49,089 bases of DNA, from the NCBI RefSeq assembly GCF_024448985.1, contig NZ_JAMOII010000026.1:1-49089 (forward strand), given 5' to 3'. Of the stretch, positions 31,831 through 45,135 are shown in pieces. The notes below the pieces were generated by a model, which made no database searches, was not told where the DNA came from, and saw only the letters and a program-made list of their open reading frames with translations. The stretch comes from Stutzerimonas stutzeri. Lineage in GTDB: Bacteria; Pseudomonadota; Gammaproteobacteria; Pseudomonadales; Pseudomonadaceae. A program made the translations under genes and the position numbers. Positions within the stretch are counted from its first letter, which is position 1; each line of letters begins with the position of its first letter.

Positions 31831-34428
31831 TCAGGCCTGTCCGAGGAAGTCCTTGGCAAAGCGCTGCAGCACGCCGCCCGCATCGTAGACCGACACTTCG
31901 TCGGCGGTATCCAGACGGCAGGTCACCGGTACTTCGACGCTCTCGCCGTTACGACGATGAATGACCAGCGTCAGCGTTGCACGCGGCGTACGCTCGCCGA
32001 TCACGTCGAAGGTCTCGGTGCCGTCTATCCCTAAGGTCTTGCGGTCGGTGCCCGGCTTAAACTCCAGCGGCAACACACCCATGCCCACCAGGTTGGTGCG
32101 GTGAATACGCTCGAAGCCTTCGGCGACGATGGCTTCCACACCCGCCAGGCGCACGCCCTTGGCCGCCCAGTCACGGGACGAACCCTGACCGTAATCGGCG
32201 CCAGCAATGATGATCAGCGGCTGCTTGCGGTTCATGTAGGTTTCGATGGCTTCCCACATGCGCATGACGGTGCCTTCCGGCTCGACGCGCGCCAGCGATC
32301 CCTTCTTCACCTGTCCATCGACGACGGCCATTTCGTTGACCAGCTGCGGATTGGCGAAGGTGGCGCGCTGCGCCGTGAGGTGGTCGCCCCGGTGAGTCGC
32401 GTAGGAATTGAAGTCCTCTTCCGGCAGGCCCATCTTGTGCAGGTACTCACCAGCGGCGCTGTCCAGCAGGATGGCGTTGGACGGCGACAGGTGGTCGGTG
32501 GTGATGTTGTCCGGTAATACTGCCAGCGGACGCATGCCCTTGAGGCTGCGCTCGCCGGCCAACGCGCCCTCCCAGTACGGCGGGCGGCGAATATAGGTGG
32601 ACATCGGACGCCAGTCGTACAGCGGACTTTCAGCTTCTTCCACCGCGCCCAGATCGAACATCGGGATGTAGATCTGGCGGAACTGTTCAGGCTTCACCGA
32701 GGAGGCAACGATGGCGTCGATTTCCTCGTCGCTCGGCCACAAGTCCTTCAGGGTGACGGGGTTGCCCTGGGCATCATGGCCCAGCACGTCCTGCTCGATG
32801 TCGAAACGCACGGTGCCGGCAATGGCGTAGGCCACCACTAATGGTGGTGAGGCCAGGAAGGCCTGCTTGGCGTAGGGGTGGATGCGCCCGTCGAAGTTGC
32901 GGTTGCCGGAAAGCACTGCCGTGGCATACAGGTCGCGGTCGATGATTTCCTGCTGGATTTTCGGGTCCAGCGCGCCAGACATGCCGTTGCAGGTGGTGCA
33001 GGCATAGGCAACGATGCCGAAACCGAGCTTTTCCAGCTCCGTCAACAGGCCGGCTTCTTCCAGATACAGCTTGGCAACTTTCGAGCCCGGCGCGAAGGAG
33101 GTCTTCACCCAAGGCTTGCGCACCAGCCCCAGTTCGTTGGCCTTCTTCGCCACCAGACCGGCGGCAACCACGTTGCGCGGGTTGGAGGTGTTGGTGCAGC
33201 TGGTGATGGCGGCGATGATCACCGCACCGTCCGGCATCAGGCCTTCCTTCTCTTCGGCCTGCGCCTTGTCCAGATGCACCGCGATGCCGCGCTCGGCCAG
33301 CGCCGAGGTCGGCAGGCGGCGGTGCGGATTGCTCGGGCCGGCCAGGTTGCGCACCACGGTCGACAGATCGAACTCCAGCACGCGCTCATATTCGGCACTG
33401 ACCAGCGCATCGGCCCAAAGGCCGGTTGTTTTCGCGTAATTCTCGACCAACGCCACCTGCTCCGGCTCGCGCCCGGTGAGCTTGAGGTAATCAATGGTCT
33501 GCTGATCGATATAGAACATCGCCGCCGTAGCGCCATACTCGGGGCACATGTTGGAGATGGTGGCGCGGTCGCCGATGGACAGGCTGTCGGCACCTTCGCC
33601 AAAGAACTCCACCCAGGCCCCGACCACGTGCTCGTTGCGCAGGAACTCGGTCAGCGCCAGGACGATATCGGTGGCGGTGATGCCCGGCTGGCGCTTGCCA
33701 GTCAGCCGCACGCCGACGATATCGGGCAGGCGCATCATGGAGGGGCGGCCGAGCATGACAGTTTCGGCTTCCAGCCCACCGACGCCGACGGCGATCACAC
33801 CCAGGGCATCGACGTGAGGGGTGTGGGAATCGGTGCCGACGCAGGTGTCCGGGAAGGCGACGCCGCCGCGCGCTTGGATCACCGGCGACATTTTTTCCAG
33901 GTTGATCTGGTGCATGATGCCGTTACCGGCCGGGATCACGTCGACGTTCTTGAATGCAGTCTTGGTCCACTCGATGAAGTGGAAGCGGTCTTCATTGCGG
34001 CGCTCTTCCACCGCACGGTTCTTCTCGAAGGCATCCGGGTCGAAGCCGGCATGTTCCACCGCCAGCGAGTGATCGACGATCAGCTGGGTCGGCACTACCG
34101 GGTTGACCTTGGCCGGGTCGCCGCCCTGCTCGGCGATCGCATCGCGCAGGCCGGCCAGGTCCACCAGCGCGGTCTGGCCGAGAATGTCGTGGCAGACCAC
34201 GCGCGCCGGATACCAAGGGAAATCCAGGTCCTGCTTGCGTTCGATGATCTGTTTCAGCGAGTCGGTCAGCATCGCCGGCTCGCAGCGACGCACCAGCTGT
34301 TCGGCCAGCACGCGGGAGGTATAGGGCAGCGTGTCGTAGGCGCCCGGCTGGATCGCTTCGATTGCCTCGCGGGTATCGAAGTAGTCAAGCAGGGTGCCAG
34401 GCAGGGGTTTGCGGTGTTCTGTATTCAT
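31831..34428 (-). CDS. acnD: Fe/S-dependent 2-methylisocitrate dehydratase
   Basis: An 865-residue aconitase-A-type enzyme that dehydrates 2-methylcitrate. I chose ATG 34428 (MNTEHRKPLPGTLLDYFD), the usual N-terminus; a TTG five codons upstream is also open. Marks: GVAFPDTCVGTDSHTPHVDALGV near 170-200, Fe-S cysteines in ITSCTNTSNPRN (near 415) and ACTTCNGMSG (near 480), and the swivel domain with ADYGQGSSRDWAAKG near 740. The sequence differs from AcnA and the gene sits between prpC and prpF, which fixes it as AcnD. Confidence 0.95.
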   Translation of the reverse strand: MNTEHRKPLPGTLLDYFDTREAIEAIQPGAYDTLPYTSRVLAEQLVRRCEPAMLTDSLKQIIERKQDLDFPWYPARVVCHDILGQTALVDLAGLRDAIAEQGGDPAKVNPVVPTQLIVDHSLAVEHAGFDPDAFEKNRAVEERRNEDRFHFIEWTKTAFKNVDVIPAGNGIMHQINLEKMSPVIQARGGVAFPDTCVGTDSHTPHVDALGVIAVGVGGLEAETVMLGRPSMMRLPDIVGVRLTGKRQPGITATDIVLALTEFLRNEHVVGAWVEFFGEGADSLSIGDRATISNMCPEYGATAAMFYIDQQTIDYLKLTGREPEQVALVENYAKTTGLWADALVSAEYERVLEFDLSTVVRNLAGPSNPHRRLPTSALAERGIAVHLDKAQAEEKEGLMPDGAVIIAAITSCTNTSNPRNVVAAGLVAKKANELGLVRKPWVKTSFAPGSKVAKLYLEEAGLLTELEKLGFGIVAYACTTCNGMSGALDPKIQQEIIDRDLYATAVLSGNRNFDGRIHPYAKQAFLASPPLVVAYAIAGTVRFDIEQDVLGHDAQGNPVTLKDLWPSDEEIDAIVASSVKPEQFRQIYIPMFDLGAVEEAESPLYDWRPMSTYIRRPPYWEGALAGERSLKGMRPLAVLPDNITTDHLSPSNAILLDSAAGEYLHKMGLPEEDFNSYATHRGDHLTAQRATFANPQLVNEMAVVDGQVKKGSLARVEPEGTVMRMWEAIETYMNRKQPLIIIAGADYGQGSSRDWAAKGVRLAGVEAIVAEGFERIHRTNLVGMGVLPLEFKPGTDRKTLGIDGTETFDVIGERTPRATLTLVIHRRNGESVEVPVTCRLDTADEVSVYDAGGVLQRFAKDFLGQA

Positions 34429-34499
34429 GCCGGAAGAACTCAATCAGGAATGTTCCGTAAAGCAAGGAAGGGAAGCCCTGCGGGCCTCCCCTCTTCCGA

Positions 34500-35627
34500 T
34501 CAGCGCTCGGCGATCGGTACGACCTTGCGCTGTTCCGGACCGATGTAATCGGCGCTCGGCCGAATGATCCGGTTGTTGCTGCGTTGTTCGAACACATGGG
34601 ACGCCCAGCCGGTCACACGCGAGCAGACGAAGATCGGCGTGAATAGCTTGGTAGGGATGCCCATGAAGTGATAGGCCGAAGCGTGGTAGAAGTCGGCGTT
34701 GGGGAAGAGCTTCTTCTGCTCCCACATGGTCTCGTCGACAGCTACCGATACCGGATGCAGCACGGTATCGCCGACTTCCTCGGCCAATTTTTTAGCCCAG
34801 ACCTTGATGACTTCGTTGCGCGGATCGGAAACGCTATAGATAGCGTGACCGAAGCCCATGATCTTTTCCTTGCGCTCGAGCATGCCCAACAGGCCTTCGC
34901 GGGCCTCTTCGGGAGTATTGAAGCGCTCGATCAGCTCCATGGCCGCCTCGTTGGCGCCGCCATGCAGCGGGCCACGCAGCGAACCGATGGCGCCAGTCAC
35001 GCAGGAGTACAGGTCGGACAGGGTCGAAGCACAAACCCGTGCGGTGAACGTCGAGGCGTTGAACTCGTGCTCGGCATAGAGGATCAGCGAGACGTTCATC
35101 ACCCGAACGTGCAGGTCGCTCGGCTTCTTGCCGTGCAGCAGCGCGAGGAAATGCCCGCCCAGGGTGTCTTCGTCGCTGGTGCACTCAATGCGTAAGCCGT
35201 CGTGGGTGAAGCGATACCAGTAGCACATGATCGCCGGGAATGCGGCCATCAGGCGCTCGGCGACGTCACGCTGCTGCTCGAAGCTGACTTCCGGCTCCAG
35301 AGTGCCGAGCACCGAAGCGCCGGTACGCATGACGTCCATCGGATGGGCGCTGGCCGGTATGCGCTCCAGCACTTCCTTCAGCGCCTGCGGCAGATCGCGT
35401 AGCGTCTTCAGGCGGTTCTTGTAAGCCGCCAGTTGCTCGACATTGGGCAGCTCCCCATGGAATAGCAGGTAGGCCACTTCCTCGAAATCGGCCACGGCAG
35501 CCAGATCGCGAACGTCATAACCGCGATAGGTCAGGCCGGCGCCTTCCTTGCCGACGGTACATAAAGCGGTCTGTCCAGCGATCTGACCGCGCAGGCCCGC
35601 CCCGCTCAATACTTTTGCTTCAGCCAT
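34500..35627 (-). CDS. prpC: 2-methylcitrate synthase
   Basis: A 375-residue citrate-synthase-fold enzyme condensing propionyl-CoA with oxaloacetate. The ATG at 35627 (MAEAKVLSGAGLRGQIAGQTALC) has AAGGAG upstream; the longer frame is basic and unlikely. Marks: GLTYRGYDVRDLA near 31, ASAHPMDVMRTGASVLG near 92, the catalytic histidine in GPLHGGANEAAMELI near 220, MGFGHAIYSVSDPRNEVIK near 255, and SRVTGWASHVFEQR near 333. It is co-transcribed with prpB upstream (79-base gap). Confidence 0.96.
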   Translation of the reverse strand: MAEAKVLSGAGLRGQIAGQTALCTVGKEGAGLTYRGYDVRDLAAVADFEEVAYLLFHGELPNVEQLAAYKNRLKTLRDLPQALKEVLERIPASAHPMDVMRTGASVLGTLEPEVSFEQQRDVAERLMAAFPAIMCYWYRFTHDGLRIECTSDEDTLGGHFLALLHGKKPSDLHVRVMNVSLILYAEHEFNASTFTARVCASTLSDLYSCVTGAIGSLRGPLHGGANEAAMELIERFNTPEEAREGLLGMLERKEKIMGFGHAIYSVSDPRNEVIKVWAKKLAEEVGDTVLHPVSVAVDETMWEQKKLFPNADFYHASAYHFMGIPTKLFTPIFVCSRVTGWASHVFEQRSNNRIIRPSADYIGPEQRKVVPIAER

Positions 35628-35706
35628 GGTTATCTCCTTATTGGATTTATTCTGGATATCGCACATCGGTGGAAGGCTCCGACGGTTCTGCCGGGACCGG
35701 ACGCGC

Positions 35707-36594
35707 TCAGCTCTTCTTCTGAGCGAACAACGCATCGAGGCTCTGCTCGAAAACGTGATAGTTGATGCGGTCGTACAGCTCCATGCGGGTCTGCATGGTA
35801 TCGATCACGTTCTTCTGCGTGCCATCACGACGCAGCGCGGTATAGACGTTTTCGGCCGCCTTGTTCATGGCGCGGAAGGCCGACAGCGGATAGAGCACCA
35901 GAGAGACGTCGACGCTGGCCAGCTCTTCGGTGGTATACAGCGGCGTTGCTCCGAATTCGGTGATATTGGCCAGGATCGGCGCATTCACGCGATCGGCGAA
36001 CGTTTTGTACATCGACAGCTCGGTGATGGCCTCGGGGAAAATCATGTCAGCGCCCGCCTCGATGCAGGCTTGGGCACGCTCGAGGGCGGACTCCAGCCCC
36101 TCCACTGCCAGCGCATCGGTGCGCGCCATGATCACGAAGCTGTCATCGGTGCGCGCATCCACCGCCGCCTTGATGCGGTCAACCATCTCCTGCTGGGAGA
36201 CGATCTCTTTGTTCGGACGATGACCGCAGCGCTTGGCGCCGACTTGGTCCTCGATATGGATCGCCGCCGCGCCGAACTTGATCATCGACTTGACGGTACG
36301 CGCCACGTTGAAGGCCGAGGAGCCGAAACCGGTGTCGACATCCACCAGCAGCGGCAGATCGCAGACATCAGTGATGCGACGTACATCGGTCAGCACGTCG
36401 TCGAGCCCGGTGATGCCGAGATCCGGCAGCCCCAACGAACCGGCTGCGACACCGCCACCGGACAGGTAAATAGCCTTGAAGCCGGCTCGCTTGGCCAGCA
36501 ACGCATGGTTGGCATTGATCGCGCCGACGACCTGCAGTGGGTGCTCACTGGCCACGGCGTCACGGAAACGCTGACCGGCAGTAGGAAGAGTCAT
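35707..36594 (-). CDS. prpB: 2-methylisocitrate lyase
   Basis: A 295-residue enzyme splitting 2-methylisocitrate into succinate and pyruvate. It has the ICL/PEPM barrel with [18 protein letters not shown] near 44, [17 protein letters not shown] near 84, and the catalytic-cysteine signature [12 protein letters not shown] near 121. The start overlaps the stop of the gntR gene, so regulator and enzymes are one transcript. Confidence 0.96.
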
Positions 36595-37586: not shown

Positions 37587-38123
37587 ATGAGCGCCAAACC
37601 CTTTCTTCTGTCGCTGTGCCTTCTGGCCTCCCCGCTCTTCGCCCAGGCGGATAGCAAAACCATCTATGGCCTGAACGAACATGTCGCTCTACCCGACTTT
37701 GGTATCGAGCTAGCTGCGAAACTCGATACGGGCGCGCAAACTGCCTCGCTCAGCGCGCGCGATATCGAAAACTTCAAGCGCAAAGGGAAGGATTGGGTTC
37801 GCTTCTACCTCGCCGTCGACGAGGCTCATGACCACCCAATCGAGCTCCCGCTGCAGCGCATCAGCAAGATCAAACGTCGCGCTGGAGACTTCGATCCAGA
37901 AGAAGAAAAAACCTATACACCGCGCCCCGTCGTGGAGCTCGAGCTGTGCATGGGTAAGGCCAAACGCAGCATTGAAGTGAACCTCACGGACAGAAGTGCA
38001 TTCCAATATCCACTTTTAATAGGTTCCGATGCGCTTACTCGCTTCGGTGCCCTGGTCGATCCAAGCCTTAAGTACGCTGCTGGCAAACCCGGCTGCATTA
38101 TCGAATCCGACGCTGACGAGTAA
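37587..38123 (+). CDS. Periplasmic retropepsin-like protease (RimK-associated, DUF785/Zn_protease family)
   Basis: 178 residues from ATG 37587. A Sec signal is clear (MSAKPFLLSLCLLASPLFAQA, cut near residue 21). The mature part is a single retropepsin-like domain: the catalytic triad DTGA at 47-50 (KLDTGAQTASLSA), a central strand VRFYLAV, and the second psi-loop VNLTDRSAFQYPLLIGSDAL near 137-156. Databases often label the family ATP-dependent zinc protease, but the visible motif is aspartic. It is first of a three-gene operon with an inactive transglutaminase membrane protein (start four bases after this stop) and an ATP-grasp ligase. The target is unknown; a periplasmic peptide or the linked membrane protein is plausible. 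A longer start upstream is open but not protein-like. Confidence 0.85.
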   Translation: MSAKPFLLSLCLLASPLFAQADSKTIYGLNEHVALPDFGIELAAKLDTGAQTASLSARDIENFKRKGKDWVRFYLAVDEAHDHPIELPLQRISKIKRRAGDFDPEEEKTYTPRPVVELELCMGKAKRSIEVNLTDRSAFQYPLLIGSDALTRFGALVDPSLKYAAGKPGCIIESDADE

Positions 38124-38127
38124 TTCC

Positions 38128-39654
38128 ATGCGCGCCCTTACCCTGCATCTCAAAGTTCTGATTTTCCTGCTCGTCACGCTGGGCATCGCGATCACCGCGT
38201 ACCAGATCTTCGTCCTCGGAATCCCAATCACCGAAGACGAAACCGATGACCTGTGGAATATCGACGCCAAAATCGAATTTCAGGCCAGCCCGCGCGAGCC
38301 GGTGAAGCTGCAGATGTACGTACCTCCGCTGAACCAGGAGTTCGTCAGCCTCAACGAAAGCTTCATTTCCAACAATTACGGCGTGAGCATCAACCGCGCC
38401 GACGGCAACCGTCGCGTCACCTGGTCGGCGCGTCGTGCCAGTGGCAATCAAACGCTTTACTACCGCCTGGTGCTCACCAGACGCTACAGCGGCGAACAAA
38501 CCGCAGCCACCGGCCCGATCTTTCGCGACAGCATCCCGGTCGAAGGTGCCGAAAAAATTGCCGCCGAAGCCCTGCTCTCACCGATCCGCCAGCATTCGGC
38601 CGATGTTGAGACATTCATCAGCGAAGCCATCAAGCGTGTAAACAATGCCGATGATGACAACGTCAAACTACTGCTCGGTGGCGATTCGGCGACTCCAAAC
38701 AAAGCCCGCGTAATCGATTTGCTGCTGTCCATCGCCCATGTTCCGATGGAGCGCGTGCATACCGTTCGACTGCTCGCCGATATGGCGCAAACGCCCGAAC
38801 TTTGGCTGCGCAGCTTCAACGGCGACAAGTGGCTGTATTTCAATCCGGAAACCGGCGAGCAAGGTCTGCCAAAAGATCGTTTGGTCTGGTGGACCGGTGA
38901 CGAGCCGCTGCTAACGCTCGAAGGTGGGCGTAATGCACAGGTGACGTTCACGCTCAACAGCAGCGAGATGAACGCCATCCGCCTGGCGAAGCTGACGGAC
39001 GAGAACACCGACGCAGATTTCCTCGAGTACTCACTTTATGGCCTGCCGCTTCAGACTCAACAGACCTATCAGATCATGATCATGATCCCGATCGGGGTAC
39101 TGGTGATTCTGATTCTGCGCAACCTCGGCGGCTTGCAGACGCTGGGTACCTTCACCCCGGTACTGATCGCACTGGCGTTCCGCGAGACCCAGATTGGCTT
39201 CGGCATCATCCTGTTTACCGTCATTACGGCACTCGGTTTGTCCCTGCGCTCCTACCTTGAACATCTGAAGTTGCAGATGCTGCCGCGTCTCTCGGTCGTG
39301 CTCACGTTCGTCGTCGTGCTGATTGCGGTGATCAGCCTGTTGAGTCACAAGCTCGGGCTCGAGCGCGGGCTTTCCGTCTCGCTGTTCCCGATGGTGATCC
39401 TGACCATGACCATCGAGCGCCTGTCGATCACTTGGGAAGAACGCGGCGGCGGTCATGCCTTCAAGGTGGCGGTCGGCACCCTGATCGCGGCAAGCCTGGC
39501 GTTCATGCTGATGAACATCCCGGAACTGACTTACTTCATCTTCACCTTCCCGGCAGTGCTGCTGATCATGGTGGGCTTCATGCTGGCCATGGGTCGCTAT
39601 CGTGGCTACCGCCTGACCGAGCTGTTCCGTTTCAAAGCCTTTCTGAAGGATTGA
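38128..39654 (+). CDS. Inactive transglutaminase-like domain fused to seven membrane helices
   Basis: 508 residues from ATG 38128; a longer frame overlaps the previous gene. Layout: one N-terminal helix (about 8-30), a periplasmic part 35-310 that includes a degenerate transglutaminase domain (about 180-250), then seven hydrophobic helices between about 314 and 488 and a short basic cytosolic tail. By eye the expected Cys-His-Asp triad reads Thr189, Glu224 and Asn239 (ATPNKAR, TPELWLRSF, YFNPETG), so no transglutaminase chemistry is expected. The domain may bind peptide instead. The gene lies between a periplasmic protease and a cytosolic ATP-grasp ligase and could bridge the two compartments. 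Confidence 0.85.
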   Translation: MRALTLHLKVLIFLLVTLGIAITAYQIFVLGIPITEDETDDLWNIDAKIEFQASPREPVKLQMYVPPLNQEFVSLNESFISNNYGVSINRADGNRRVTWSARRASGNQTLYYRLVLTRRYSGEQTAATGPIFRDSIPVEGAEKIAAEALLSPIRQHSADVETFISEAIKRVNNADDDNVKLLLGGDSATPNKARVIDLLLSIAHVPMERVHTVRLLADMAQTPELWLRSFNGDKWLYFNPETGEQGLPKDRLVWWTGDEPLLTLEGGRNAQVTFTLNSSEMNAIRLAKLTDENTDADFLEYSLYGLPLQTQQTYQIMIMIPIGVLVILILRNLGGLQTLGTFTPVLIALAFRETQIGFGIILFTVITALGLSLRSYLEHLKLQMLPRLSVVLTFVVVLIAVISLLSHKLGLERGLSVSLFPMVILTMTIERLSITWEERGGGHAFKVAVGTLIAASLAFMLMNIPELTYFIFTFPAVLLIMVGFMLAMGRYRGYRLTELFRFKAFLKD

Positions 39655-39657
39655 GCC

Positions 39658-40641
39658 ATGTTCGGTCTGATCAAGACGTGGAAGGCCCTGGAAGCCAAGG
39701 GCATCATGGGCATCAACCGCCGCAACGCGGACTATGTGCTCAAGTACAACAAGCGCAACCTGTACCCGATCGTCGATGACAAGATCATCACCAAGGAACG
39801 GGCCATCGAAGCCGGTATCGATGTGCCGGAAATGTACGGCATCATCGAGACCGAGAAGGATATAGAGAAGCTCCAGGACATCGTGAAGGGGCGCCCCGAT
39901 TTCGTCGTCAAGCCGGCGCAGGGCGCTGGCGGCGACGGCATTCTGGTAATCGCCGATCGATTCGAGGGCCGCTACCGGACGGTTTCGGGCAAGATCATCA
40001 CGCATGAGGAGATCGAGCATCAGATTTCCAACATCCTCACCGGGCTCTACTCTCTGGGCGGACACCGCGATCGGGCGCTGATCGAATACCGCGTTACGCC
40101 GGACCCAATCTTCAAGAGCATCAGCTACGAAGGCGTGCCGGATATCCGCATCATCGTGCTTATGGGCTACCCGGTCATGGCCATGCTGCGCCTGCCGACC
40201 CGCCAGTCCGGCGGCAAGGCCAACCTGCACCAGGGCGCCATCGGCGTCGGTGTGGATCTGGCCACCGGCATCACGCTGCGCGGCACTTGGCTGAACAACA
40301 AGATCACCAAGCACCCCGACACCACCAATGCGGTGGATGGCGTGCAGCTACCCAACTGGGACGGTTTCATGAAGCTCGCCGCCGGCTGTTATGAGCTGTG
40401 CGGGCTGGGCTACATCGGCGTAGACATGGTGCTCGACCAGGACAAGGGTCCGCTGATTCTTGAGCTCAACGCCCGCCCTGGCCTGAATATTCAGATTGCC
40501 AATGACTGTGGCCTGACCCATCGCGCGCACGCTGTTGAGAACCGGATCGAGGAACTCAAGGAAAAGGGTATTCAGGAAACGCCCGAAGAGCGGGTGCGAT
40601 TCGCCCAGGATCTTTTCGGCCACATCCCGACCCACTCCTGA
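39658..40641 (+). CDS. Alpha-L-glutamate ligase-like ATP-grasp enzyme
   Basis: A 327-residue cytosolic protein without signal or membrane segments. ATP-grasp marks: DDKIITKERAIEAGIDVPEMYG (40-61), DFVVKPAQGAGGDGILV near 82-98 (nucleotide loop), VPDIRIIVLMGYPVMAMLRLP, and the metal site GVDMVLDQDKGPLILELNARPGLNIQIA near 257-284 (Asp, Glu, Asn). The start lies three bases after the previous stop, so the three genes are one operon. ATP-grasp enzymes of this type join carboxylates to amines (peptide or amino-acid ligation); the substrates here are unknown. Confidence 0.88.
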   Translation: MFGLIKTWKALEAKGIMGINRRNADYVLKYNKRNLYPIVDDKIITKERAIEAGIDVPEMYGIIETEKDIEKLQDIVKGRPDFVVKPAQGAGGDGILVIADRFEGRYRTVSGKIITHEEIEHQISNILTGLYSLGGHRDRALIEYRVTPDPIFKSISYEGVPDIRIIVLMGYPVMAMLRLPTRQSGGKANLHQGAIGVGVDLATGITLRGTWLNNKITKHPDTTNAVDGVQLPNWDGFMKLAAGCYELCGLGYIGVDMVLDQDKGPLILELNARPGLNIQIANDCGLTHRAHAVENRIEELKEKGIQETPEERVRFAQDLFGHIPTHS

Positions 40642-40688: not shown

Positions 40689-42029
40689 ATGCCTCTCTGT
40701 ACGGTACACGCCCTTCCCTATCAACCTGATCCGGCGCAGTGGTTCGAGCGCATCCGGCACGCGCCCGGTGCCGTATTGCTCGACTCCGGACGACCGGTCG
40801 CCGAGCGCGGACGGTACGACCTGCTAAGCGCATGGCCGATCGAAATACTGGAGCCGCTCATAACAGAGACGGGCAACGCCTTTTTTGCACGACTGCGTAA
40901 CGCGCTAGAAGCACTTGGCGATGCGGATGCTCCGGCGGATATCGAGCTGCCATTTACTGGCGGGCTGCTGGGTTTTCTTGCCTACGATTTCGGCTCACGA
41001 CTCGAACGACTCCCCACCAACGCCGCGCAAGACCTCCAGCTTCCGCATGCCCAACTCGGCCTGTATGCCTGGGCATTGATCAACGATCATCACAGCCAGA
41101 CGACGCATTTGGTGTTTCACCCCAAGCTGCCCGATGCAGAGCGGATTCAGCTGATCGAACGGTTCGAGTCGGTGTGGTCACCCGCGCACACGTCGTTCTG
41201 TCTCGGCTCGCGGTTCAAAGCCGATCTGGAGCGCGCCGAGTACCAGGATGCCATTGCGCGTATTCAGCAATACATCCAGGCTGGCGATTGCTATCAGGTG
41301 AATTTCGCACATCGTTTTCGAGCGCCCTGCAACGGAGATCCTTGGCAGGCATACCAGGCGTTGCGCGCCGCATGCCCAACGCCTTACTCGGGTTATATCA
41401 ATGTTAAAGGCGGCGCGATCCTCAGCCTATCCCCCGAGCGTTTTTTGCGATTGACTGAAGGCGTTGTAGACACGCGCCCGATCAAGGGCACCCGCCCCCG
41501 CCGACTCGATCCCGAAGCCGACCAAAGAGAGGCTCAAATACTGCTGAGTAGCGATAAGGATCGAGCGGAAAACCTGATGATCGTCGATTTGCTGCGCAAC
41601 GATTTAGGACGCAGCTGCGAGATCGGCACCGTAAGGGTTCCCGAACTATTCTCGCTGGAAAGTTATCCGAACGTGCACCATCTGGTGAGCGGGGTCAGCG
41701 GCACCCTGGCCGCCGACAAGGATGCGTTGGACCTGCTGGCAGGCAGCTTTCCGGGAGGGTCGATTACCGGCGCGCCCAAAATTCGCGCCATGCAGGTGAT
41801 CGATGAGCTTGAACCCAGCCAGCGTTCGATCTATTGCGGCTCGTTGTTATATCTCGATGTACGGGGCGAGATGGACAGTTCGATCGCCATCCGCACGCTA
41901 CTGGTTCAGAACGACCAGGCCGTTTGCTGGGGCGGCGGAGGAATAGTGGCCGACTCCGACTGGCAGGCCGAGTACCAGGAAACCCTGGACAAGGTGAAGG
42001 TACTGATGGAGACGTTGGAACGGCTATAG
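40689..42029 (+). CDS. pabB: Aminodeoxychorismate synthase component I
   Basis: A 446-residue chorismate-utilising enzyme: with a PabA-type amidotransferase it makes 4-amino-4-deoxychorismate for folate. Marks: EYQDAIARIQQYIQAGDCYQVNFAHRF near 180, DTRPIKGTRPRR near 258-269 (the PIKGT lysine distinguishes PabB from TrpE), ENLMIVDLLRNDLGRSCEIG near 295, and SFPGGSITGAPKIRAMQVIDELEP near 355. As I recall it precedes thrH in Pseudomonas too. A heptamer repeat begins directly at its stop codon. Confidence 0.95.
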   Translation: MPLCTVHALPYQPDPAQWFERIRHAPGAVLLDSGRPVAERGRYDLLSAWPIEILEPLITETGNAFFARLRNALEALGDADAPADIELPFTGGLLGFLAYDFGSRLERLPTNAAQDLQLPHAQLGLYAWALINDHHSQTTHLVFHPKLPDAERIQLIERFESVWSPAHTSFCLGSRFKADLERAEYQDAIARIQQYIQAGDCYQVNFAHRFRAPCNGDPWQAYQALRAACPTPYSGYINVKGGAILSLSPERFLRLTEGVVDTRPIKGTRPRRLDPEADQREAQILLSSDKDRAENLMIVDLLRNDLGRSCEIGTVRVPELFSLESYPNVHHLVSGVSGTLAADKDALDLLAGSFPGGSITGAPKIRAMQVIDELEPSQRSIYCGSLLYLDVRGEMDSSIAIRTLLVQNDQAVCWGGGGIVADSDWQAEYQETLDKVKVLMETLERL

Positions 42030-42067
42030 GCTGCAAGCTGCAAGCTGCAAGCTGCAAGCTGCAAGCT
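42030..42067. repeat. Tandem heptamer repeat (GCTGCAA) x about 5.4
   Basis: Five exact copies of GCTGCAA and a partial sixth (GCT) start directly after the pabB stop TAG. Slippage could change the copy number without touching pabB. A related but diverged GCTT/CTTGAAGC-rich stretch lies at about 42205-42235. Confidence 0.95.
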
Positions 42068-42106
42068 AATACTGTGCGGGCTGGCGTCCAGAGCCTGTCA
42101 AACTAA

Positions 42107-42183
42107 CGTAGGGTGGGCTTCAGCCCACCAAGGCCTGGCCCTGTCGGTGAACTGAAGCGGAACGCCGCCCGGCCCACCCTACG
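42107..42183. repeat. Dispersed palindromic intergenic repeat, copy 2
   Basis: The 77-base element starts CGTAGGGTGGGC and ends in its exact complement GCCCACCCTACG. It contains a nested hairpin GGTGGGCTTCAGCCCACC and the internal CTGAAGCGGAACGCC. It has the same plan as 15843-15933. It lies between the convergent genes pabB and thrH. Confidence 0.8.
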
Positions 42184-42239
42184 GTTGCCGCTGCTTTTCC
42201 GCGTTTACTTGAAGCTTATGGCTTGCGCCTTGCCGCTAT

Positions 42240-42857
42240 TTAGAGCGCCAGCTTGCGATTCGATGCCTTGATGAATTCCTGCTTGAGTTCCTCGAAGGTA
42301 TGCACAGCCGGAAACTGTGGAAACTCGCGGATGACGTTGTCCGGTGCGTGGAACAGGATGCCGGCGTGGGCCTCGGACAGCATGGTCGTGTCATTGTAGG
42401 AATCGCCCGCCGCGATGACGCGGTAATACAGGCTCTTCAGCGCGATCACTGACTGGCGCTTGGGGTCTTTCTGGCGCAGCTCGTAATTTACGACACGCCC
42501 TGATTCGTCAGTGATCAGGCGATGGCAAAGCAGCGTCGGGAAGCCCAGCTGGCGCATCAGCGGCTGCGAAAACTCATAGAAGGTGTCCGACAGGATCACA
42601 ACCTGGAAGCGCTCGCGTAGCCAGTCGACGAACTCGACGGCGCCATCGAGCGGTTTCAGGGTCGCGATGACGGCTTGGATATCCGCCAGTTTCAGGCCGT
42701 GCTCGTCGAGGATGCGCAGCCGCTGCTTCATCAGCACGTCATAGTCAGGAATGTCCCGCGTGGTCGCCCGGAGGGATTCGATTCCAGTGGCCTCGGCAAA
42801 GGCGATCCAGATTTCCGGAACCAGCACACCTTCCAGGTCAAGACAGGCTATTTCCAC
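42240..42857 (-). CDS. thrH: Phosphoserine phosphatase / homoserine phosphotransferase
   Basis: A 205-residue HAD-superfamily enzyme of the ThrH type. It dephosphorylates phosphoserine and can transfer the phosphate to homoserine. Motif I is LDLEGVLVPEIW (6-17, Asp nucleophile), motif II is VVILSDTFYEF near 90, a lysine region KDPKRQSVIALKSL follows, and motif III is VIAAGDSYNDTTMLSEAHAGILFHAPD near 150-175. It is convergent with pabB and divergent from cysH. Confidence 0.94.
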   Translation of the reverse strand: MEIACLDLEGVLVPEIWIAFAEATGIESLRATTRDIPDYDVLMKQRLRILDEHGLKLADIQAVIATLKPLDGAVEFVDWLRERFQVVILSDTFYEFSQPLMRQLGFPTLLCHRLITDESGRVVNYELRQKDPKRQSVIALKSLYYRVIAAGDSYNDTTMLSEAHAGILFHAPDNVIREFPQFPAVHTFEELKQEFIKASNRKLAL

Positions 42858-43042
42858 GGGCCACTCCTTAAAGCAGAAAAATGAAGCGGCACTCTAACGA
42901 CAAGGGCGGAGCGACGCAACGCAGCAGCTTATTCACTAAAGTTTGGCGTAACCGCTGCAAACGTTATTTAGCGTCATAAAGCCTATTTGCTAACATCCGC
43001 GGCCAGCAGAGCGCCCCAAGCGCCAATCAAGGAAGCCGCCTG

Positions 43043-43780
43043 ATGACTCACCAAACTATTGATATCTCCGACCTGGCCGCAGCCTATGCTGGCAAATCAC
43101 CACAAGAGATTCTCAAGCTCGCCTTCGACCTCTTCGGAGACGATCTATGGATCTCTTTCAGCGGCGCCGAAGACGTCGTGCTGGTGGACATGGCCTGGAA
43201 GCTGAACAAAAACGTAAAAGTGTTCAGCCTCGATACCGGTCGTTTACACAGTGAGACCTACCGCTTCATCGAGCAGGTTCGCGAGCACTACGGCATTCCG
43301 ATCGAGATCATGACGCCCAACCCTGCCCTGCTCCAACCGATGGTCAACGAAAAAGGGTTGTTCAGTTTCTATCGCGACGGCCATGGTGAATGCTGCGGAA
43401 TACGTAAGATCGAGCCGCTTCGGCGCAAGCTGTCCGGCGTTCGCGCCTGGGCCACTGGCCAGCGTCGCGACCAGAGCCCTGGTACCCGCAGTCAGGTTTC
43501 GGTACTGGAAATCGACAGTGCTTTTTCGACGCCGGAGCACACGTTGTACAAGTTCAACCCCCTGGCGCAGATGTCCAGCGAAGAAGTCTGGGGCTATATC
43601 CGCATGCTAGAGGTGCCTTACAACACTCTGCATGAACGTGGATTCATCAGCATTGGCTGCGAGCCTTGCACTCGCCCGGTACTGCCGAACCAGCACGAGC
43701 GTGAAGGACGCTGGTGGTGGGAGGAGTCCACGCAGAAGGAATGTGGGCTGCATGCCGGCAATCTGATAGCGAAGCAGTGA
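43043..43780 (+). CDS. cysH: Adenylylsulfate (APS/PAPS) reductase, thioredoxin-dependent
   Basis: A 245-residue assimilatory sulfate reduction enzyme making sulfite. Marks: [36 protein letters not shown] near 47-85, [16 protein letters not shown] near 113-128, and [11 protein letters not shown] near 204-214. The CC and CxxC cysteine pairs bind a [4Fe-4S] cluster, which marks the APS-reducing type rather than the E. coli PAPS type. The C-terminal KECGLH motif holds the catalytic cysteine. It lies next to its regulator cysB, which converges on it. Confidence 0.94.
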
Positions 43781-43836
43781 GAACAACCAAAGCACTGGAC
43801 GAAGCTGCTGCCTTGACTTGAGGCTTACCGCTACTG

Positions 43837-45135
<1,299 letters not shown>

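What the first reader, a model, noticed from the sequence alone, without database searches (positions are those of the whole stretch)
37587..40641. Three-gene retropepsin / inactive transglutaminase-7TM / ATP-grasp operon: an unassigned peptide-modifying system
A periplasmic aspartic protease domain (DTGA), a membrane protein with a degenerate transglutaminase domain and seven C-terminal helices, and a cytosolic ATP-grasp ligase are encoded with gaps of only 3-4 bases. Similar neighbourhoods were predicted bioinformatically as peptide-tagging systems, and I recall reports tying retropepsin-like operons to surface or biofilm behaviour in some Pseudomonas. The chemistry and substrate remain open. 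The layout suggests ligation of a small amino compound or peptide inside, passage or sensing by the 7TM protein, and cleavage outside.
Basis: partly seen in the sequence, partly recalled or inferred. Interest (0 to 1): 0.75.

Follow-up and report, generated by a model that had tools for sequence, protein, structure and literature searches.

The report
Known rlo stress-tolerance operon, wider family
The three genes are the recently described rlo operon of Pseudomonas-like bacteria, whose products jointly control osmotic stress tolerance and cell shape, and their relatives suggest a machine that makes a charged peptide chain inside the cell, passes it outward and trims it outside.

Summary
The trio is a full-length rlo operon: rloA 37587-38123 (secreted retropepsin), rloB 38128-39654 (dead transglutaminase + 7TM), rloC 39658-40641 (ATP-grasp). 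It is not unassigned: Lormand et al. 2025 (PMC12239564) named it and tied it to hypoosmotic tolerance, biofilm, cell shape and antibiotic sensitivity, with polyglutamate cleaved in vitro; the window proteins pass NCBIfam's RloA and RloB models. Substrate and division of labour remain open.
New here, not found in the papers I could search: RloB/RloC belong to a wider family. Relatives in six phyla keep an intact Cys-His-Asp triad, often fuse RloB to RloC, and mostly carry a TPR gene and an outer-membrane barrel gene instead of the retropepsin. In genomes drawn without regard to the triad, a retropepsin gene lies just upstream of 85 of 88 dead-triad loci with rloC, 0 of 9 intact ones and 0 of 2 lacking the domain. 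Dead loci form one clade, so this is one evolutionary switch. RloC keeps RimK's catalytic residues.
Best reading: RloC makes a polyglutamate-like chain, RloB passes it across the membrane, RloA trims it outside. Ligation and transport are inferred.

The parts
37587..38123 (+). rloA: secreted retropepsin-like aspartic peptidase, 178 aa
   Evidence: ORF; NCBIfam NF052262 RloA 316 bits, cut-off 280; PF05618; 9g58_A E 1.3e-75
37587..37649 (+). signal-peptide-like N terminus of RloA, residues 1-21 (cleavage after AQA by eye)
   Evidence: sequence reading; no signal-peptide program was run
37725..37736 (+). DTGA active-site motif, Asp47
   Evidence: sequence
38128..39654 (+). rloB: membrane protein, inactive transglutaminase domain + 7TM domain, 508 aa
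   Evidence: NCBIfam NF052267 RloB 1062.6 bits, cut-off 900; AlphaFold2 mean pLDDT 90.1
38200..38679 (+). N-terminal region of RloB matched by PF14400 (residues 25-184); the part of the model aligned to 3isr spans residues 40-282
38905..39642 (+). 7TM membrane domain of RloB (PF14402)
   Evidence: model of residues 283-508 alone, pLDDT 87
39658..40641 (+). rloC: ATP-grasp ligase, RimK-related, 327 aa, no signal-peptide-like start by eye
   Evidence: TIGR02291 564 bits, cut-off 314; PF14397
40423..40470 (+). metal/ATP site of RloC: D256, E269, N271 (role of these residues recalled from ATP-grasp enzymes)

Best explanation
The trio is the rlo operon. RloC, a RimK-type ATP-grasp ligase in the cytosol, builds a poly-alpha-L-glutamate-like chain, free or on a carrier (inferred). 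RloB, whose membrane domain is the constant partner of RloC, moves that chain across the inner membrane (inferred); its periplasmic transglutaminase-like domain keeps a Cys-His-Asp triad in relatives and has lost it here (loss shown, role inferred). RloA, in the periplasm, cuts the chain (activity on polyglutamate shown by others in vitro). Without any RloA-type protease the uncut polyanion, or an over-modified envelope target, builds up outside the inner membrane and harms wall and osmotic balance, which is why deleting rloB or rloC rescues the protease mutant. In this clade the retropepsin stands where relatives have the intact transglutaminase and, in most, a TPR protein and an outer-membrane barrel.
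For: Identity: NCBIfam RloA and RloB models passed, TIGR02291 passed by RloC; the genome also has RimB, RloA2 and RloA3 above their cut-offs, as in P. aeruginosa. Published: RloA cleaves 8E and 10E, not 6E or shorter; R114A and R137A lose rescue; deletion of rloB or rloC fully rescues growth without salt and partly the other defects. Here: RloC positions K85, E143, D162, R164, N189, H191 identical in 32 of 32 dead-type and 77 of 77 intact-type RloC, D256, E269, N271 in 32 of 32 and 76 of 77 (one gap), all as in the genome's own RimK (the sets hold a few contigs twice). B and C are one reading frame in 25 of 81 intact-triad loci that could be judged, the ligase after the membrane domain, which puts that end in the cytosol and suggests the pair works as one unit. 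The 7TM + RloC core persists when the transglutaminase is intact, dead or absent. Outer-membrane-barrel-like genes stand next to the core in two arrangements: after TPR in 45 of 64 intact loci with enough sequence, and directly before the 7TM gene in the two transglutaminase-less loci.
Confidence: 0.5

Rival explanations
1. RloC adds glutamate tails to a specific protein or lipoprotein (possibly RloB or a cell-wall enzyme) that is then exposed in the periplasm, and RloA removes the tails: a periplasmic counterpart of the RimK/RimB cycle, with no free polymer.
For: RimK/RimB do this to RpsF; RloA cleaves a C-terminal 8E tail on RpsF in vitro; RloC keeps RimK's residues.
Against: No acceptor known; proteins would have to be modified before export; most intact-triad relatives carry TPR and barrel genes that suggest a product sent outward.
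Confidence: 0.27
2. RloB is a sensor or regulator: the periplasmic dead enzyme binds a ligand or fragment trimmed by RloA and signals through the 7TM domain to RloC; no passage of product.
For: Dead enzyme domains often become binding domains (general knowledge); all three genes act in one pathway.
Against: The transglutaminase domain can be absent altogether while 7TM + RloC stay together; the membrane domain holds nine invariant residues in 42 sequences across intact and dead types.
Confidence: 0.13
3. The trio modifies peptidoglycan stem peptides or another wall polymer directly, with glutamate or another amino compound, and RloA reverses it.
For: Mutants have cell-shape and wall-antibiotic phenotypes.
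Against: RloA cuts glutamate runs of 8 or more, and arginines placed in or beside the run reduce or abolish cutting, a poor fit to short wall peptides.
Confidence: 0.1

Closest known systems
rlo operon (rloABC) of Pseudomonas aeruginosa PA14 / PA1768-PA1767-PA1766 of PAO1
   Same: Gene order, domains, catalytic motifs, named NCBIfam models passed, same set of paralogues in the genome
   Different: Nothing of substance seen; an ortholog in another member of the family (RloB 79-96% identical to the six same-family genomes compared). The PA14 sequence itself was not fetched.
RimK/RimB ribosome-modification system
   Same: ATP-grasp + retropepsin pair, catalytic residues of RimK kept
   Different: RloA is below the RimB cut-off (91.6 vs 200 bits) and has a signal-peptide-like start; RloB has no counterpart; the genome has its own RimB/RimK
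Intact-transglutaminase B-C-TPR-barrel loci (this work; no published name found)
   Same: Homologous 7TM + ATP-grasp core
   Different: Cys-His-Asp intact, B and C fused in 25 of 81 judged loci, TPR and often outer-membrane barrel genes, no retropepsin found beside them
PgsBCA/CapBCA poly-gamma-glutamate synthase
   Same: Possible analogy: ligase + small membrane subunit + outer factor (recalled)
   Different: Ligase families differ (ATP-grasp vs Mur-ligase type, the latter recalled); CapC homology not supported

Membership tests
rlo operon | RloA, RloB, RloC in this order with tight spacing | tested here: met
rlo operon | RloA above the RloA model cut-off; RloB above the RloB model cut-off | tested here: met
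   316 vs 280 bits; 1062.6 vs 900 bits
rlo operon | DTGA motif, signal peptide, two cysteines for the disulfide | tested here: met
   D47-A50; hydrophobic N terminus by eye; C121 and C170 in the mature part
rlo operon | polyglutamate-contact residues K46, R92, R114, R137 of P. aeruginosa RloA | tested here: met
   K45, R91, R113, R136 at the offset of one that Asp47/Asp48 gives; matched by offset, not by alignment to the PA14 sequence
rlo operon | transglutaminase domain without catalytic triad | tested here: met
   T, E, N
rlo operon | co-transcription | not tested
   only spacing seen; promoter scan uninformative
rlo operon | role in hypoosmotic tolerance and cell shape | not testable with these tools
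   published for P. aeruginosa PA14
RimK/RimB system | protease above the RimB cut-off | tested here: not met
   91.6 vs 200 bits
active transglutaminase / cysteine protease | Cys-His-Asp triad | tested here: not met
   window RloB T, E, N; intact in relatives
PgsBCA/CapBCA | CapC/PgsC-type membrane subunit | tested here: inconclusive
   hhalign probability at most 3.4%, P 0.013; a shared GxxxxGxxxP spacing seen by eye is not evidence by itself
NqrD/RnfA/Mtr membrane-subunit fold | same fold over the domain | tested here: inconclusive

The most novel reading that the evidence does not exclude
RloB/RloC are the pared-down branch of an unrecognised, multi-phylum secretion apparatus that polymerises amino acids with an ATP-grasp ligase and sends the chain through a 7TM exporter, a periplasmic TPR scaffold and an outer-membrane barrel: a polypeptide counterpart of synthase-dependent exopolysaccharide secretion. 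In the rlo branch the outer parts are missing, the built-in cysteine enzyme is dead and a retropepsin does the trimming, leaving a periplasmic polyanion.
Probability: 0.3. Interest if true: 0.85.

Novelty: already known. Interest (0 to 1): 0.5.

Why it matters
The operon itself is known, but its substrate and chemistry are open, and mutations in it turn up in P. aeruginosa studies on exopolysaccharide and on ceftazidime. The comparative result narrows the question: the constant core is membrane domain + ligase, while the periplasmic enzyme is swapped or lost. That makes the polymer-export idea directly testable, both in the rlo operon and in the fused relatives, where ligase and membrane domain are one polypeptide.

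Tried and rejected
CapC/PgsC homology of the 7TM domain: a lead from a recalled likeness. Profile comparison of 30 and then 115 membrane domains (89 after filtering) with ten CapC repeats from one bacterial family gave at most 3.4% probability, P 0.013. Rejected as evidence; the CapC side was shallow (Neff 1.6-2.5), so it is not disproved.

Solved structures by sequence: for RloB only antibody chains and other unrelated rows, best E 0.29; RloC matches three RimK-type ligases, best E 3.7e-5; the barrel profile matches no solved chain at E 1. Barrel family names from Pfam were scattered: PF13505 in 3 of 40, six other families in 1 of 40 each, best PF11854. The VIA list for the whole RloB model is mostly transglutaminase-like, beta-sandwich and RND rows.

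Rows dropped or corrected: G077 (transporter-like by eye, not RloB); G388/L040 in the CapC search (CtaA-like by eye). In one search the B and C profiles cross-hit because of fused proteins, so those tags were not used for counts; TPR profiles hit TPR proteins in general, and the barrel profile was built from 40 of the loci's own genes, so hits in those 40 are by construction. L112 was wrongly called fused (other frame) and corrected. In one search L201 and L202 were marked a* because the retropepsin overlaps the extended rloB frame; L181, L201 and L208 were marked as lacking RloC for a like reason and have it. L208 was marked A, but that gene is a RimB-like one 1.9 kb away beside RimK, so it is not counted. 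The uncorrected count was 53 of 57; the corrected one is 54 of 55 dead-triad loci, all 54 ending between 161 bases inside and 57 bases before the rloB frame, and 0 of 2 without the domain. In 28 of the 55 the Cys column holds a gap rather than another residue. The barrel rule looked only downstream of B, so its 0 of 57 missed the upstream barrels of L208 and L209. L056 and L057 (dead, no RloC beside them; L057 has a retropepsin gene on the opposite strand) are left out of the 88. Fisher p of 1.5e-10 ignores relatedness; the tree needs one change, so the pattern is a single switch.

Rooting of the RloC tree on RimK rests on very long branches and is not used to claim which state came first. The membrane-domain tree carries long-branch warnings.
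Full report
What is there. Three genes on the + strand, 37587-38123, 38128-39654 and 39658-40641, separated by 4 and 3 bases. The proteins match PF05618, PF14400 + PF14402, and PF14397. NCBIfam names them: RloA (316 bits, cut-off 280), RloB (1062.6 bits, cut-off 900) and the alpha-L-glutamate ligase-like family TIGR02291 (564 bits, cut-off 314). Elsewhere the same genome encodes RimB with RimK beside it, RloA2 and RloA3, the three proteases above their own cut-offs (RimK named by eye), the set described for P. aeruginosa. The window's RloB is 79-96% identical to those of six other genomes of its family that I compared.

What is known. Lormand et al., mBio 2025 (PMC12239564; I read the abstract, introduction, parts 1 and 2 of the results, sections 8 and 11, and the discussion; not the sections on biofilm and morphology, methods or supplements) describe rloA, rloB and rloC of P. 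aeruginosa. Loss of all three RloA proteases prevents growth without salt and impairs biofilm, shape and antibiotic tolerance; the catalytic Asp is needed; RloA cuts runs of 8 or 10 glutamates, not 6 or fewer; deletion of rloB or rloC fully rescues growth without salt and partly the rest. Substrate and mechanism are left open. The terms active transglutaminase, export, transport and TPR do not occur in that paper's main text. Passages of other papers: PA1766, PA1767 and PA1768 are listed with 2, 4 and 1 insertions in a suppressor table of a study on exopolysaccharide in flagellar mutants (PMC7314104); PA1767 is listed with 4 in a table of mutants with reduced ceftazidime susceptibility (PMC10187892); [quoted passage not shown] The 2009 prediction of such neighbourhoods by Iyer et al. 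is recalled; the paper is not held.

Neighbourhood test. In 185 genomes drawn from the class, PF14402 gave 40 matches, one judged false by eye (G077). RloC's model lies within 600 bases downstream in 36 of 40; a PF05618 match lies upstream on the same strand, within 2.5 kb of the 7TM match, in 31 of 40 (lists). The 39 real matches divide into 33 dead-triad loci with RloC (one, G114, has it on another contig because its own contig ends), 4 intact-triad loci and 2 dead loci without RloC. Of the 33, 31 have the retropepsin; G120 and G167 do not, and each has one PF05618 gene elsewhere.

An intact-enzyme branch. Four matches (L051, L053, L054, L055) carry Cys216, His251 and Asp266 (L054 numbering) and match Transglut_core PF01841 where tested (L054, L055); the window protein has T, E and N and no such match. 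PF01841 also matches the dead L057, so the family match alone does not tell activity. Of 30 dead-type proteins L005-L034 none has Cys at the Cys place or His at the His place; the other three of the 33, L052, L141 and L143, also lack both. A scan of one genome per species with the four intact sequences returned 80 loci, the best of 91, from Pseudomonadota, Nitrospirota, Campylobacterota, Myxococcota, Bacteroidota and Spirochaetota (record titles and their NCBI ranks; most are metagenome bins, so single labels may be wrong). The search patterns include the His and Asp regions, so their presence is by construction; the Cys is not: 79 of 79 extracted proteins have Cys and His, 67 of 79 also align Asp (L094 was not extracted). 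Three of the first four loci are the same contigs as L061, L073 and L077, as contig lengths show.

Its usual gene order is B-C-TPR-barrel. Over 84 loci (the 80 and the first four) C was found in 82; TPR follows in 72 of 76 loci with more than 0.7 kb after C; a barrel-family gene follows in 45 of 64 loci with more than 0.9 kb after TPR, and not in 19. B and C are one reading frame in 25 of 81 loci that could be judged. In the fused proteins the ligase follows the last membrane helices, so that end is cytosolic (inference from topology). Barrel nature of the 40 aligned proteins: no transmembrane helix after residue 60 in 40 of 40, an aromatic among the last three residues in 30 of 40, a hydrophobic N terminus in 32 of 40, weak porin-type matches in a few; not modelled. 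A profile of 35 retropepsins found none in any of the intact loci, while it found L052 and L057 in the same set; of 79 named loci placed, 73 have at least 700 bases and 66 at least 1,500 bases upstream.

Replication. In 398 genomes of the phylum, 65 have PF14402; the 62 loci not already held were read. Intact triad: 5, all of one family; retropepsin 0 of 5, TPR 5 of 5, barrel 4 of 5. These five are on contigs that the named scan also returned, so the sampling is independent but the loci are not. Dead triad: 55; retropepsin ending from 161 bases inside to 57 bases before the rloB frame in 54 (52 by the first rule); downstream TPR 0, barrel 0. Domain absent: 2 (L208, L209); order barrel - 7TM - RloC, no RloA beside them; the barrel genes match the barrel profile at E 3.5e-9 and 1.2e-8. 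Both samples together: retropepsin beside 85 of 88 dead-triad loci with RloC, 0 of 9 intact, 0 of 2 without the domain. One genome (G033, contamination 6) holds both a dead and an intact locus.

Trees. RloC proteins of the dead type form one clade (31 rows, SH-aLRT 100), the fused ones another (18 rows, 95), and the state changes once (quick method, no outgroup; the same for 32 dead rows with RimK outgroup). The membrane domain alone gives one change too, with weaker support (79) and long-branch warnings. So protease and enzyme state swapped once, together; the correlation is not many independent events.

Chemistry. RloC positions K85, E143, D162, R164, N189 and H191 are identical in 32 of 32 dead-type and 77 of 77 intact-type sequences, D256, E269 and N271 in 32 of 32 and 76 of 77 with one gap, and all equal the genome's RimK (a few contigs are in the sets twice). 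This supports a working RimK-like ligase. That it uses glutamate is inference from the family and from RloA's substrate.

Mechanism. Shown by others: RloA cuts polyglutamate in vitro; loss of RloB or RloC removes the harm done by loss of RloA. Shown here: the ligase site is intact; the transglutaminase is dead in this branch and can be absent; membrane domain and ligase are the constant, sometimes fused, core; many relatives pair that core with barrel-like genes. Inferred: RloC makes the polyanion, RloB passes it out, RloA trims it.

Print check. Searches for the operon and the wider family. In the listings (titles, starts of abstracts, counts) and the passages read I saw no description of intact-triad B-C-TPR-barrel loci. 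Only the held open-licence library was searched, and most listed papers were not opened.

Noticed in passing
L113, L117-L122, L124-L140 (24 named loci) and L055: RloB-like and RloC-like parts in one reading frame, mostly about 800 aa (L055 838), with Cys and His of the transglutaminase triad kept; L134 has an interrupted start.
   Followed up: yes
L208 2329-5094, L209 2351-5346: A variant with no transglutaminase domain: outer-membrane-barrel-like gene, 7TM-only protein, RloC; in L208 it follows RimB-like and RimK-like genes.
   Followed up: partly
L035-L039, L041-L045 (also L059, L060): Open frames of about 1,080 aa (four of five; the fifth is cut by a contig end) with two CapC (PF14102) domains in tandem, in the same family (f186) that carries intact-triad loci; partners not examined.
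   Followed up: no
L056 5139-6761, L057 4947-6572: Dead-transglutaminase 7TM proteins with no RloC beside them; L057 has a retropepsin gene on the opposite strand next door.
   Followed up: partly
L051 360-3642, L053 222-2057, L067 2459-4279: TPR protein genes, lipoprotein-like by eye in L051 and L053, directly upstream of some intact-triad loci.
   Followed up: no
window 31831-36594 and 40689-44811: Neighbours look like 2-methylcitrate cycle genes upstream and pabB, thrH, cysH and cysB downstream (recognised by eye, no family search).
   Followed up: no
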